Positions 27,383 to 32,043 of a DNA stretch of 32,043 nucleotides are shown in pieces (the stretch's first letter is position 1; every line of letters begins with the position of its first letter). The notes below the pieces were generated by a model. That model worked only from the letters and a program-made list of their open reading frames with translations. It was not told the origin of the DNA and searched no databases. This DNA is from Sphingomonadaceae bacterium (GTDB lineage Bacteria > Pseudomonadota > Alphaproteobacteria > Sphingomonadales > Sphingomonadaceae). Where the stretch lies: positions 1-32,043 of the forward strand of contig JAHRVR010000001.1 of the NCBI GenBank assembly GCA_019090585.1. Reading direction: 5' to 3'. The position numbers and the translations under genes are program-made.

Positions 27383-27429
27383 AATGGTGCGCCCGACAGG
27401 ATTCGAACCTGTGGCCCCCAGATTAGGAA
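27383..27429 (-). repeat. Attachment-site scar 1: 3' half of tRNA-Arg(CCU)
   Basis: Reading the minus strand: anticodon loop TTCCTAA (anticodon CCT), 3' anticodon stem TCTGG, variable loop, T-arm ACAGG-TTCGAAT-CCTGT, 3' acceptor strand CGGGCGC and encoded CCA. The 5' half (acceptor, D-arm, 5' anticodon stem) is missing, because the adjacent bases on the 27430 side do not resemble it. Together with an identical copy at 28253 this is the core left by tRNA-targeted integration. It is not a functional tRNA. Confidence 0.85.
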
Positions 27430-28252: not shown

Positions 28253-28299
28253 AATGGTGCGCCCGACAGGATTCGAACCTGTGGCCCCCAGATTAGGAA
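28253..28299 (-). repeat. Attachment-site scar 2: 3' half of tRNA-Arg(CCU), next to the integrase
   Basis: Identical over 47 bases to 27383-27429; both flanks then diverge. On the right side the bases TGCTCT that follow soon after could match the tRNA D-arm/anticodon junction (AGAGCA on the minus strand), so the element may carry a degenerate extension of the tRNA. The acceptor 5' strand is absent, so it is not a whole tRNA. It marks the left end (attL) of the element carrying the integrase. Confidence 0.85.
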
Positions 28300-28452
28300 T
28301 TCTATGCTCTGGCTTTTCTCGGACCATCTCGGATGACAAAACTGGCTAATATTAGGGCTTTATAGTCCTATACTGTGCATTACCGTCCATCAGCATTTGC
28401 ACCAAAGTGGTACCTAAGGTAACAGGCGGGCATCCCAGTGAGAGGATGTCGC

Positions 28453-29682
28453 ATGGCTACGAAGCTCACCGATGCCAAGCTGAAGGGGCTCAAGCCACCG
28501 TCGGCAGGGCAATCCGAAATCAGTGACACGGACGTGCCCGGCCTTCGTGTGCGCATCGGCACGACTGGCGCGAAGACATTCATCATTCGCAAGCGAGTGG
28601 CGGGCAAGATCCGCAACATTACCGTCGGACGATATGGCCCTCGCTTCGGCCTGGCGGACGCTCGGCGAAAGGCGCGTTCCCTGTTGAGCGATATTGAAGC
28701 AGGGAAAGCACCACCAGCGCCTAAGGGAAAGGGCAGTGTCTCGTCCCTGACAATCCGAGCGATGATGCCGCAATATCTCGAAAGCAAGGCTGGCCTTCGA
28801 TCCTACTCTGAAGTCGAGAGGATCCTGCGCAGCTATGTTCTGCCAACCTTGGGCGATCGGCTTGCCGACACAGTGACGCGTGGTGACGTTACGCAACTGC
28901 TCGACCAGCTGCAGGCCGACGGCTCCCCGTCCCGCGCCCGCGCCGTGCATGCGCAGCTGTCCGCCTTCTATAGCTGGGCGCTGCCTCGCCTCGATCGGCT
29001 TCCGGCAAACCCATGCCGCGACGCGGGCAAGCCCGCCAAACCCAAAGCCCGCGACCGAGTGCTTGGCGATGATGAGTTGGCAGCGCTCTGGCGCGTCGCC
29101 GATGCAGAGTCTGCGCCCTGGGGGCCGGCGCTCAAGATCCTGATGCTAACTGGCGCGCGCCGCGATGAGGTGTTTTCGGCCGATCACAGCGAATTTGACC
29201 TTGACGCTCAGGAGTGGAGCATTCCTGCCGAGCGATCGAAGAACGGCCTGCCGCACCTGGTCCCGCTGTCCGATGTTGTGCTGGCGGTGGTGGCAGGAGT
29301 CGCCGAGGTAGAGGGCAGTGGCAAGCTGTTTCCGGCGCGCGGCAATATGGAGAAAGGGGTTAGCGGCTACTCCAAGGGCATACGTCGCATCCGTTCCGCG
29401 CTCGACAAGGCGCTGGACAGAAAGACCGGACCGCACTGGCAAATGCATGACATTCGCCGCACGGTGGCGACTGGCATGCAGCGCATTGGGGTCCGCTTCG
29501 AAGTGACCGAGGCAGTGCTCAACCATTTGAGCGGTGCGCGATCGGGCATCGCCGGCGTCTATCAGCGCCATGACTGGAAAGCCGAAAAGCGCGATGCACT
29601 GGATGCGTGGTCGCGGCACTTGCTCGCAATCGTCGCCAAGGCCGATCGCAGCAACGTCATCGATCTGGAGTTGGTTGGATGA
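28453..29682 (+). CDS. Tyrosine-type site-specific integrase (prophage/integrative element)
   Basis: 409 residues from ATG 28453, chosen because AGAGGA lies 6 bases upstream; the track GTG at 28438 is less likely. An N-terminal DUF4102-type arm-binding domain (about 1-90) has LTDAKLKGLKPP and VPGLRVRIGTTGAKTF. The core-binding domain is at about 100-190. The catalytic domain follows with R in LTGARRDEV (about 236), K in RSKNGLPHLVPLS (about 263), H332/R335 in MHDIRRT, H358 in LNHLSG and nucleophile Y370 in GVYQRHDW. All catalytic residues are present, so it is likely active. It lies about 150 bases from scar 2 and points into the element. Confidence 0.95.
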   Translation: MATKLTDAKLKGLKPPSAGQSEISDTDVPGLRVRIGTTGAKTFIIRKRVAGKIRNITVGRYGPRFGLADARRKARSLLSDIEAGKAPPAPKGKGSVSSLTIRAMMPQYLESKAGLRSYSEVERILRSYVLPTLGDRLADTVTRGDVTQLLDQLQADGSPSRARAVHAQLSAFYSWALPRLDRLPANPCRDAGKPAKPKARDRVLGDDELAALWRVADAESAPWGPALKILMLTGARRDEVFSADHSEFDLDAQEWSIPAERSKNGLPHLVPLSDVVLAVVAGVAEVEGSGKLFPARGNMEKGVSGYSKGIRRIRSALDKALDRKTGPHWQMHDIRRTVATGMQRIGVRFEVTEAVLNHLSGARSGIAGVYQRHDWKAEKRDALDAWSRHLLAIVAKADRSNVIDLELVG

Positions 29683-30217: not shown

Positions 30218-30400
30218 AACATGACAACACTTCTACGACTTCCTGAAGTTCTCGCTCGCACGAATCTGTCACGGAGCAAGCTGTACGAACTGCTTGACGC
30301 CGGCCAATTCCCTAAGCCTTGCAAAGCTGGCGAGCGGGTGAATACCTGGGCCGATACAGAGATTGAAGAATGGATACAGACGCGACTCGCTGATCGCTGA
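30212..30400 (+). CDS. AlpA-family excisionase/transcriptional regulator
   Basis: 62 residues (53-62 depending on start; ATG at 30212 or 30221). LLRLPEVLARTNLSRSKLYELLDAGQFPKP is the winged HTH of AlpA/MerR-like excisionases, and WADTEIEEWIQTRLA is the usual C-terminal end. AlpA proteins act as regulators of integrase genes or as excisionases in integrative elements and P4-like satellites. Five bases separate its stop from the ATPase start, so they are probably co-transcribed. Confidence 0.9.
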   Translation: MQNMTTLLRLPEVLARTNLSRSKLYELLDAGQFPKPCKAGERVNTWADTEIEEWIQTRLADR

Positions 30401-30405
30401 TTTCA

Positions 30406-31596
30406 GTGACCACTCGCGATATTTTATCCCCGCCCGGACGGCGCAATAATGGCAAGCCGGCACCGATCGATGGTGCAGAACTACTCGAGCGCGTCGAGCA
30501 ATTCGCGCAGCGGTTCATCGCATTCCCATCGTCAGAGACCGCTGTCGCCTTGGTCCTCTGGGTAACCCATGCGCACATCATGGACGCTTGGGACTCCACA
30601 CCCAGACTGGCGGTGCTTTCGCCTGAACCTGGCAGCGGAAAGAGCCGTGTACTTGAGGTAGCGGAAAGGCTGGTCCCTCGCCCGGTGCAGGCTGTGAACG
30701 TCACACCGGCATACCTATTCCGAAAGGTTGGCGATGAGGCGGGGCGGCCAACCATCCTATTCGATGAAATCGACACCGTGTTCGGACCAAAGGCAAAGGA
30801 CAATGAGGAAATCCGAGGGATGCTTAACGCTGGGCACAGGCGGGATGGCGTTGCAGGCCGGTGCGTCGTGAAGGGTAAGATCATCGAAACAGAAGAGATC
30901 CCGGCCTACTGTGCAGTGGCGGTTGCAGGCCTCGGCCGCCTTCCTGATACCATTCTTTCGCGATCAGTCGTCATCCGGATGCGTCGACGCTCGCCGGATG
31001 AGGTTATCGAGCCATTTAGGCGGCGGGTAGTTGAGGATGAAACACAGGCGCTTCGGGATGACCTGGCGCTATGGGCTGAACAGGTCGAGAGCCGTGTGCA
31101 TGGTGTCTGGCCAAATATGCCACCCGATATTGCAGATCGTGACGCGGACGTGTGGGAGCCGTTGCTTGCAATCGCAGACGCCGCTGGTGGTTCGTGGCCG
31201 GGACGGTCGCGTGTTGCGGCTGTTGCGCTTGTTGCGGACTCTAAGCGGGAGGCACCCAGCCTCGGAGTGAAGCTGCTTTCAGACCTTCGGTCAGTATTTG
31301 GTGAGCACGATCGCCTATCCACACAGTCCATCCTTAATGGATTACATGAGATAGATGAGTCTCCTTGGTCCGATCTCAGGGGGAAGCCATTAGACGCGCG
31401 GCGCTTATCGCTGATGCTCAAGGACTATGGGATTAAGTCGACGACAGTCCGCATTGGCGATCAGACTCCCAAAGGTTACCTTCGGACAGGCCTGTATGAT
31501 GCTTGGCAGCGGTATTTGAGTGAGCCTACCGATAACTCCGCAACAAGCGCAACAGCCGCAACGGAGGACAGGGCTTTCAAGGCGGACGATTGGTGA
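30406..31596 (+). CDS. DUF3631-type P-loop ATPase of the mobile element
   Basis: 396 residues from GTG 30406 (no other start near). Walker A-like SPEPGSGKS (K79; Pro at the place of the usual Gly), Walker B TILFDEID (D120, E121), then SRSVVIRMRR with arginines suited to a sensor or finger role. The C-terminal half has DUF3631 features such as VKLLSDLRSVF, and a DARRLSLMLKDYGIKS, TPKGYLRTGLYDAW region. These proteins occur in integrative elements and phages and are often near primase or replication functions; the activity is not proven. It ends in a low-complexity SATSATAAT tail. A 26-base inverted repeat lies inside the gene. Confidence 0.83.
   Translation: MTTRDILSPPGRRNNGKPAPIDGAELLERVEQFAQRFIAFPSSETAVALVLWVTHAHIMDAWDSTPRLAVLSPEPGSGKSRVLEVAERLVPRPVQAVNVTPAYLFRKVGDEAGRPTILFDEIDTVFGPKAKDNEEIRGMLNAGHRRDGVAGRCVVKGKIIETEEIPAYCAVAVAGLGRLPDTILSRSVVIRMRRRSPDEVIEPFRRRVVEDETQALRDDLALWAEQVESRVHGVWPNMPPDIADRDADVWEPLLAIADAAGGSWPGRSRVAAVALVADSKREAPSLGVKLLSDLRSVFGEHDRLSTQSILNGLHEIDESPWSDLRGKPLDARRLSLMLKDYGIKSTTVRIGDQTPKGYLRTGLYDAWQRYLSEPTDNSATSATAATEDRAFKADDW
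31213..31238. repeat. Left arm of a 26-base perfect inverted repeat inside the ATPase gene
   Basis: Made of three 9-base units, GTTGCGGCT, GTTGCGCTT and GTTGCGGA(C). In the ATPase frame it encodes VAAVALVAD. Its exact reverse complement lies at 31537-31562. Confidence 0.9.
31537..31562. repeat. Right arm of the 26-base perfect inverted repeat
   Basis: Exact reverse complement of 31213-31238 over all 26 bases; it encodes SATSATAA in the ATPase frame. Arms are 298 bases apart and both start at a codon boundary. Confidence 0.9.
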
Positions 31597-31879: not shown

Positions 31880-32043
31880 ATGACTGATCTTGACTTATTC
31901 GGTGAGCCAATCCTGCCACCTCGCGGTCCTGGCCGTCCACGCCACGAGCCGACTCGTGCCACGCGAACGAACGTCAAACGGATGCAAAGCCAAGGCCACG
32001 CGCAGCCCGCGATCGCGGCAGCGTTGGCCATCACGATCCCAAC
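31880..32043 (+). CDS. Start of a small mobile-element protein (partial, runs off the window)
   Basis: Not in the ORF track because it is open at the edge. ATG 31880, with GAGG 6 bases upstream, gives about 54 residues beginning MTDLDLFGEPILPPRGPGRP. From memory this N-terminus is shared by short proteins found beside AlpA/ATPase genes in alphaproteobacterial elements, which continue into a helix-turn-helix; the visible GHAQPAIAAALAITIP fits its first helix. The C-terminus is outside the window, so the function is a guess. Confidence 0.7.
   Translation, partial: MTDLDLFGEPILPPRGPGRPRHEPTRATRTNVKRMQSQGHAQPAIAAALAITIP

What the first reader, a model, noticed from the sequence alone, without database searches (positions are those of the whole stretch)
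31213..31562. Perfect 26-base inverted repeat of 9-base units inside the element's ATPase gene
Both arms consist of three GTTGCGNNT-type units and are identical over 26 bases in opposite orientation, 298 bases apart, both in codon phase. On the minus strand the left arm encodes the same SATSATAAT peptide that the right arm encodes on the plus strand. This is too long for chance and is not explained by the protein. Options are iteron-like binding sites of a replication origin for the excised element, a protein-binding loop, or an invertible segment. In the last case I worked out that inversion would put a stop codon (TAA) about 20 codons after the left arm, truncating the ATPase.
Basis: partly seen in the sequence, partly recalled or inferred. 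Interest (0 to 1): 0.65.

Follow-up and report, generated by a model that had tools for sequence, protein, structure and literature searches.

The report
Replication-start binding sites hidden inside gene
The mirrored 26-letter repeat is real and is one example of a widespread signal: two sets of three 9-letter protein-binding sites, most likely the replication start of a mobile element, written inside the gene of the protein that probably reads them and changing spelling together from element to element.

Summary
In detail: a perfect 26-nt inverted repeat (31213-31238 / 31537-31562, 298 nt apart) made of three GTTGCG units at 9-nt spacing per arm. Synonymous shuffles of the gene never exceed 16 nt. 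It is not peculiar to this element. Among 59 diverged clusters of DUF3631 (RepAM) genes from alphaproteobacteria, actinobacteria, capsid-bearing satellites and Streptomyces integrative elements, 59% carry three-unit arrays of form [G/C]TNNC[G/C] on both strands around the gene's 3' end; 0 of 2186 control windows do. The two middle bases differ between elements but agree between the two strands of one element (63.6 of 70 versus 33.5 +- 3.0 permuted, p<1e-5), even where the peptides are identical and only synonymous bases differ. The arms flank exactly the segment encoding the protein's predicted winged-helix domain, and unit sequence tracks that domain, not the ATPase domain. Best explanation: iterons of a replication origin recognised by the DUF3631 AAA+ initiator helicase, analogous to PICI/SaPI and SCCmec Cch2 origins but embedded in coding sequence. 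Binding and origin function are inferred, not shown. Invertible-switch and protein-repeat readings are rejected; a pure stem-loop is unlikely. RepAM was already a known initiator; its recognition code and placement appear new in the library searched.

The parts
31213..31238 (+). Left iteron array: three GTTGCG units at 31213, 31222, 31231 (9-nt period), inside the DUF3631 coding sequence (VAAVALVA)
   Evidence: homologous arrays at the aligned site in about 20 of 59 clusters
31537..31562 (-). Right iteron array: three GTTGCG units on the - strand (CGCAAC at 31539-31544, 31548-31553, 31557-31562), coding for SATSATAAT in the predicted disordered C-terminal tail
30406..31596 (+). DUF3631 / RepAM-family AAA+ ATPase, 396 aa; Walker A (SPEPGSGK) and Walker B (FDEID) regions conserved in 25 homologues; the presumed initiator
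   Evidence: PMC3218068
31261..31515 (+). Segment encoding the predicted winged-helix domain (aa 286-370), lying exactly between the two arrays
31239..31536 (.). 298-nt inter-array segment, 47% AT against 40% upstream in the gene; possible unwinding region
30221..30400 (+). AlpA-type excision/regulatory protein (PF05930)
28438..29682 (+). Tyrosine integrase of the element
28253..28299 (-). Probable left attachment site: 47-nt copy of the 3' part of a tRNA gene (anticodon read as CCT, Arg); second copy at 27383-27429
   Evidence: direct reading; no whole tRNA found in the window

Best explanation
The inverted repeat is a pair of oppositely oriented iteron arrays, each three 6-bp units at 9-bp spacing, forming the replication origin (or its core) of an integrative element. 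The DUF3631/RepAM protein, an AAA+ helicase-type initiator with a C-terminal winged-helix domain, binds the units through that domain, assembles on the two arrays, melts the DNA near or between them and unwinds it for the host or element replication machinery once the element has excised. The arrays are written into the initiator's own coding sequence, one in a helix just before the winged-helix domain and one in the disordered tail after it, so the recognition domain and its target stay linked and diverge together. SHOWN by sequence: the arrays, their conservation, their covariation across strands at synonymous sites, and their association with the winged-helix domain. INFERRED: binding by this protein, origin function, hexamer loading and melting between the arrays.
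For: Arrays on both strands in 59% of 59 clusters and on at least one strand in 85%, against 0 and 2.6% of 2186 control windows from the same loci. The chain on each strand was chosen independently, yet the middle bases N3N4 agree within elements: 63.6/70 against 33.5+-3.0 permuted, p<1e-5. Synonymous covariation: with V-A codons at the left arm and A-T codons at the right arm, left GTT goes with right GCA (L003, L017, L102), GTA with GCT (L147, L129, L022, L131, L135, and L026 and L051 at their conserved units), GTG with GCC (L128, L021, L013, some units mixed with GCA). Unit type changes at least 15 times on a tree of 22 labelled rows built without the array region. Unit distance is associated with winged-helix distance given the other protein segments (partial r 0.265, p 0.0005) and not with the ATPase segments (p 0.12-0.97). 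L017/L018: about 97% identical protein up to aa 264, about 55% after, GTTGCG versus GTTTCG. Model: AAA+ plus winged helix, Foldseek hits to MCM, ORC, RuvB, D5 and NrS-1. PF12307 = RepAM, reported responsible for autonomous replication of pMEA300 (PMC3218068). The segment between arms has a lower GC3 only in elements with the left arm (drop 0.075 versus -0.009, p 9e-7). Two Streptomyces relatives are circular plasmid records with int, xis-like gene, DUF3631, primase/polymerase and FtsK/TraB. SaPI Rep and SCCmec Cch2 recognise iterons through their C-terminal domain; Cch2 needs a 23-bp stretch with three 5-nt iterons (PMC7581432).
Against: No binding or replication experiment exists for this protein and these sites. 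Array geometry is not constant: 16 clusters have -> <- arms, mostly about 325 bp apart, and 19 have <- -> arms 40-265 bp apart, so a strict inward double-hexamer model does not fit all. The inter-arm region in the window is only mildly AT-rich (47%), unlike the AT-rich centre of PICI origins. Some relatives have only one recognisable array or none (L132, L136, L075). The association of unit with winged helix could come partly from physical linkage, and the GC3 comparison is partly confounded by host lineage. PMC3218068 reports a prediction that RepAM works by rolling circle.
Confidence: 0.8

Rival explanations
1. The arrays are initiator (or other element protein) binding sites but act as operators or copy-number (handcuffing) sites, and the true origin is elsewhere.
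For: Many iteron arrays serve control roles (established knowledge). In Streptomyces relatives one array lies between the DUF3631 gene and the next, xis-like gene. Variable geometry.
Against: The left array lies deep in a coding gene and no promoter-like site was found near it; arrays stay in pairs on opposite strands; lower GC3 between the arms; the best-studied analogues use such arrays as origin (PMC7581432, PMC6092414).
Confidence: 0.13
2. The two arms form a long stem-loop (pRN1-type stem-loop origin) and covary because they base-pair.
For: The single strand folds better than shuffles (z -5.3). pRN1, whose replication protein also ends in a winged helix, uses a stem-loop downstream of its gene (PMC4234260), and a Sulfolobus plasmid (pXZ1) holds a distant relative.
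Against: Spacer middle bases do not covary (0.37 versus 0.32 permuted, p 0.27) while unit bases do (0.90 versus 0.52). Register differs between arms in 5 of 35 clusters, and unit order differs in others (L012, L028, L090), which would break pairing. Some elements carry three or more arrays (L048, L135, L014).
Confidence: 0.05
3. The arrays belong to a rolling-circle double-strand origin, as PMC3218068 reports was predicted for RepAM elements.
For: A published prediction based on putative nick sites.
Against: The protein has conserved Walker A and B regions and a predicted AAA+ plus winged-helix architecture matching replication helicases. Its conserved His-x-His (HAH, aa 55-57) starts at the end of a predicted helix ahead of the Walker A loop.
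Confidence: 0.05
4. Invertible DNA switch that truncates the ATPase when the 298-nt segment flips.
For: Perfect arms; inversion would give TAA about 20 codons after the left arm.
Against: Homologues keep covarying units with imperfect arms, different register and different geometry; every homologue examined has the segment in the same orientation; 26 nt is short for homologous inversion and no dedicated recombinase site is apparent.
Confidence: 0.01
5. A protein-level repeat (VAx VAx VAx / SAT SAT SAT) with incidental DNA similarity.
For: Both arms are coding and in phase.
Against: Synonymous shuffles, synonymous covariation, peptides that change with the units, and arrays outside coding sequence in Streptomyces.
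Confidence: 0.005

Closest known systems
RepAM (DUF3631, PF12307) replication initiator of actinomycete integrative elements (pMEA300 type)
   Same: Same protein family; gene next to int/xis and sometimes a Prim-Pol gene; reported responsible for autonomous replication
   Different: The paper available here reports no iterons and a rolling-circle prediction; in alphaproteobacterial members one array lies inside the gene ahead of the winged-helix segment
PICI / SaPI rep-ori
   Same: Initiator helicase recognising two sets of short iterons near the 3' end of rep (PMC6092414, PMC7581432)
   Different: Known ones lie just downstream of rep around an AT-rich region; here arrays are partly or wholly coding, bracket the winged-helix segment, use a DUF3631 initiator and show only weak AT enrichment
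SCCmec Cch2 origin
   Same: C-terminal domain of an AAA+ helicase binds a short stretch with three 5-nt iterons; 23 bp holding three 5-nt iterons would imply about 9-bp spacing if evenly placed (my inference)
   Different: Single direct-repeat stretch downstream of the gene, AAGTG, different helicase family
pRN1 ORF904 stem-loop origin
   Same: Helicase initiator with C-terminal winged helix; origin at the 3' end of its gene; a Sulfolobus plasmid (pXZ1) holds a distant relative (26% identity over 59% of the query)
   Different: Stem-loop with no iterons; primase fused
pWTY27 RepA iteron region
   Same: Streptomyces plasmid with a primase/polymerase gene; iterons of 7-8 bp on both strands bound by RepA (PMC3583192)
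   Different: Non-coding 300-bp region; whether RepA is DUF3631 could not be checked (record not held)

Membership tests
DUF3631 / RepAM initiator family | Match to PF12307 above the curated cut-off | tested here: met
   211 bits against cut-off 24, aa 191-370
DUF3631 / RepAM initiator family | Drives autonomous replication of an element | not testable with these tools
   Reported for pMEA300 RepAM (PMC3218068); needs an experiment here
Iteron-type origin | Multiple short repeats with fixed spacing next to or in the initiator gene | tested here: met
   Three units at 9 nt in each arm; conserved across relatives, 158 of 170 spacings are 9 nt and 12 are 8 nt
Iteron-type origin | Repeats bound by the cognate initiator | not testable with these tools
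   Indirect only: unit sequence associated with the winged-helix domain and not with other segments
Iteron-type origin | AT-rich unwinding region next to the iterons | tested here: inconclusive
   47% AT between arms versus 40% upstream; lower GC3 in left-arm elements, p 9e-7, confounded by lineage
[quoted passage not shown]
   Two sets exist, but both lie inside the gene and AT enrichment between them is weak
PICI (phage-inducible chromosomal island) | Phage-dependent induction and packaging | not testable with these tools
   The element is cut off by the contig end at 32043; relatives L126 and L135 carry portal and prohead-protease genes, L126 also a capsid gene
Actinomycete ICE (AICE) | FtsK/SpoIIIE-type Tra protein | tested here: inconclusive
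   Present in Streptomyces relatives L097 and L098; none seen in the part of the element in the window, but the element is truncated
pRN1-type stem-loop origin | Structure conserved without sequence units | tested here: not met
   Unit bases covary, spacer middle bases do not; register broken in 5 clusters
Rolling-circle HUH initiator | HUH-endonuclease fold with catalytic Tyr | tested here: not met
   Model is AAA+ plus winged helix and structural hits are AAA+ proteins; no Pfam rolling-circle match. Sequence and model level only
Invertible DNA switch | Both orientations observed, or recombinase sites at the arms | tested here: not met
   All homologues read are in one orientation; no sequencing reads available

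The most novel reading that the evidence does not exclude
A self-contained specificity cassette: in the alphaproteobacterial and satellite branch, the origin's two iteron arrays bracket the coding sequence of the very domain that reads them. Recognition domain and target would then be inherited, diverge and possibly be exchanged as one roughly 350-bp block, letting related elements acquire new, mutually compatible origins while keeping the same ATPase. The rule [G/C]TNNC[G/C] with variable NN would be a readable code between winged-helix residues and DNA.
Probability: 0.35. Interest if true: 0.75.

Novelty: new variant of a known kind. Interest (0 to 1): 0.62.

Why it matters
DUF3631/RepAM initiators are spread over actinomycete conjugative elements, satellites and proteobacterial islands, yet the only paper in the library that names the family describes no DNA target and reports a rolling-circle prediction. 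The arrays give a concrete target sequence for each element, predict which elements should be compatible, and give a natural set of matched domain/site pairs from which a recognition code could be learned. They also show a likely origin signal under strong selection inside a coding sequence, covarying at synonymous sites, which gene annotation does not record.

Tried and rejected
Invertible switch: the stop-codon arithmetic is right, but homologues argue against it. Pure stem-loop: rejected on spacer and register data. Gene conversion between arms as the cause of identity: would copy spacers too, whose middle bases do not covary. Protein repeat: rejected by synonymous shuffles and synonymous covariation. 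L017/L018 as a recent domain swap: not upheld, because DNA identity is only about 82% in the conserved part, so an old exchange and fast divergence of the winged helix cannot be told apart. Independent-pairs tests on the tree had too few pairs for significance. In that tree the right-arm labels were set by hand, equal to the left, so the independent evidence for covariation is, not. PDB sequence search: no relative. Papers on SaPI origins and on AICEs (te Poele 2008) and the pWTY27 and pMEA300 records were not held, so prior description of repeats in RepAM origins cannot be excluded.

Full report
OBSERVATION. The repeat is present as described: 31213-31238 and 31537-31562, 26 nt, perfect, 298 nt apart. 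Each arm holds three GTTGCG units at 9-nt spacing on opposite strands, and the pair is unique in the assembly. The host gene (30406-31596) is a DUF3631 protein, 211 bits against a cut-off of 24. It lies downstream of a tyrosine integrase (28438-29682) and an AlpA-type gene (30221-30400). The contig ends at 32043, so the element's right end is missing. Shuffling synonymous codons of the gene gave no inverted repeat longer than 16 nt in 300 trials.

RELATIVES. Protein searches brought in more than 100 relatives from genomes, viral contigs and plasmids. A de novo scan for 9-nt periodicity showed arrays near the 3' end of most of these genes, and reading them showed the same pattern with different letters: GTTGCG (window, L017, L102), GTTTCG (L018, L088), GTAGCG (L022, L129, L135 and many Streptomyces), GTGGCG (L021, L033, L128), GTAACG (L020, L126), GTGACG (L080), GTTACC (L127), GTAACC (L029, L040, L094), GTCGCG (L145), CTAGCG (L014). 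A distant relative (37% identity, L004) also has a 19-nt inverted repeat of this type with one arm near its C-terminus and one after its stop codon.

TEST. I clustered relatives at 85% protein identity (59 clusters) and chose the best three-unit chain on each strand independently. Either strand passes in 85% and both strands in 59% of clusters, against 2.6% and 0 of 2186 control windows from the same loci. In the 35 clusters with both, the two middle bases agree between strands far beyond permutation (63.6 of 70 against 33.5+-3.0, p<1e-5). Relatedness inflates such a test, but unit type changes at least 15 times on a tree made without the array region (22 labelled rows; right-arm labels in that tree were set by hand equal to the left, so the independent evidence for covariation is). 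The cleanest evidence is synonymous: with V-A codons at the left arm and A-T codons at the right, the Val third base and the antisense Ala third base change together.

ANATOMY. Spacing is 9 nt in 158 of 170 cases and 8 nt in 12; the consensus is T-G-T-N-N-C-G-G-N-T. Two layouts exist: arms facing each other, mostly about 325 bp apart, with one arm in the gene ahead of the winged-helix segment (the window's layout), and arms facing away, 40-265 bp apart, with one arm in the C-terminal tail or just after the stop and one further downstream, common in Streptomyces. L135 has an internal array, a C-terminal array and downstream arrays. In the window the arms flank exactly the region coding for the predicted winged helix (aa 286-370), and the right arm codes for a predicted disordered tail.

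PROTEIN. Walker A and B regions are conserved. The AlphaFold model (mean pLDDT 76.5) is an AAA+ domain followed by helices and a winged helix, and Foldseek finds MCM, ORC, RuvB, vaccinia D5 and NrS-1 helicase. TM-scores are low (0.2-0.4), so this supports the class only. Unit distance correlates with winged-helix distance after accounting for the rest of the protein (partial r 0.265, p 0.0005) and not with the ATPase segments. L017 and L018 have about 97% identical protein up to aa 264, about 55% after, and different units; their DNA is only about 82% identical in the conserved part, so this is not a recent swap.

WHAT IT IS. PF12307 is RepAM, reported responsible for autonomous replication of pMEA300 (PMC3218068). 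Streptomyces relatives L097 and L098 are circular records with int, xis-like gene, DUF3631, primase/polymerase and FtsK/TraB. Viral-contig relatives L126 and L135 carry integrase, prohead protease and portal, and L126 a capsid gene, like capsid-forming satellites. SaPI Rep and SCCmec Cch2 recognise short iterons through their C-terminal domain (PMC7581432), and PICIs have two iteron sets by rep (PMC6092414). The simplest reading is an iteron origin read by the DUF3631 winged helix. In left-arm elements the inter-arm segment has a lower GC3 than the rest of the gene, compatible with an unwinding region, though lineage confounds this.

ALTERNATIVES. A stem-loop is disfavoured because spacer middle bases do not covary (p 0.27), register differs between arms in 5 clusters and unit order differs in others, although the strand folds well (z -5.3). 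An invertible switch has no support in homologues. Operator-only function remains possible. Rolling-circle replication, predicted for RepAM, does not fit the AAA+ architecture.

LIMITS. No binding or replication test is available. Changing geometry between lineages is unexplained. Only one paper in the library names DUF3631, and key older papers are not held, so priority of the repeat observation in pMEA300-type elements is unverified.

Noticed in passing
window 27383-27429 and 28253-28299: A 47-nt direct repeat equal to the 3' part of a tRNA gene (anticodon read as CCT, Arg), 870 nt apart, with no complete tRNA in the window: attachment sites, suggesting an older insertion or remnant next to the current element.
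   Followed up: partly
L126 and L135 (viral contigs): DUF3631 initiator with embedded iterons in elements that also carry integrase, prohead protease and portal (capsid too in L126): they look like capsid-forming satellites rather than phages.
   Followed up: partly
window 31880-32043: Open reading frame cut by the contig end, matching PHROG 12540 (unknown function, phage proteins).
   Followed up: partly
L025 3297-3326 and 8900-8932: Further arrays of the same type (CGTAAC / GTTACG) away from the DUF3631 gene, while the expected right arm is missing at the gene's end: perhaps a second related element nearby.
   Followed up: no
L099 (Phipami28) and L100 (vB_Pae_U1): Two Pseudomonas aeruginosa 'phage' records carry a DUF3631 relative plus Rhs-type genes; the 16-kb one looks like an integrative element rather than a phage. 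L099 has scattered TGTCGCGGAT motifs on both strands near the gene's end.
   Followed up: partly
window 30568-30576 (protein aa 55-57, HAH): A conserved His-Ala-His starting at the end of a predicted helix ahead of Walker A; could be mistaken for the HUH motif of rolling-circle initiators.
   Followed up: no
L017, L022, L129 versus L027, L031, L097 (all clusters): Array orientation reverses between the layout with an internal left arm (-> <-) and the Streptomyces layout (<- ->); no explanation found.
   Followed up: no
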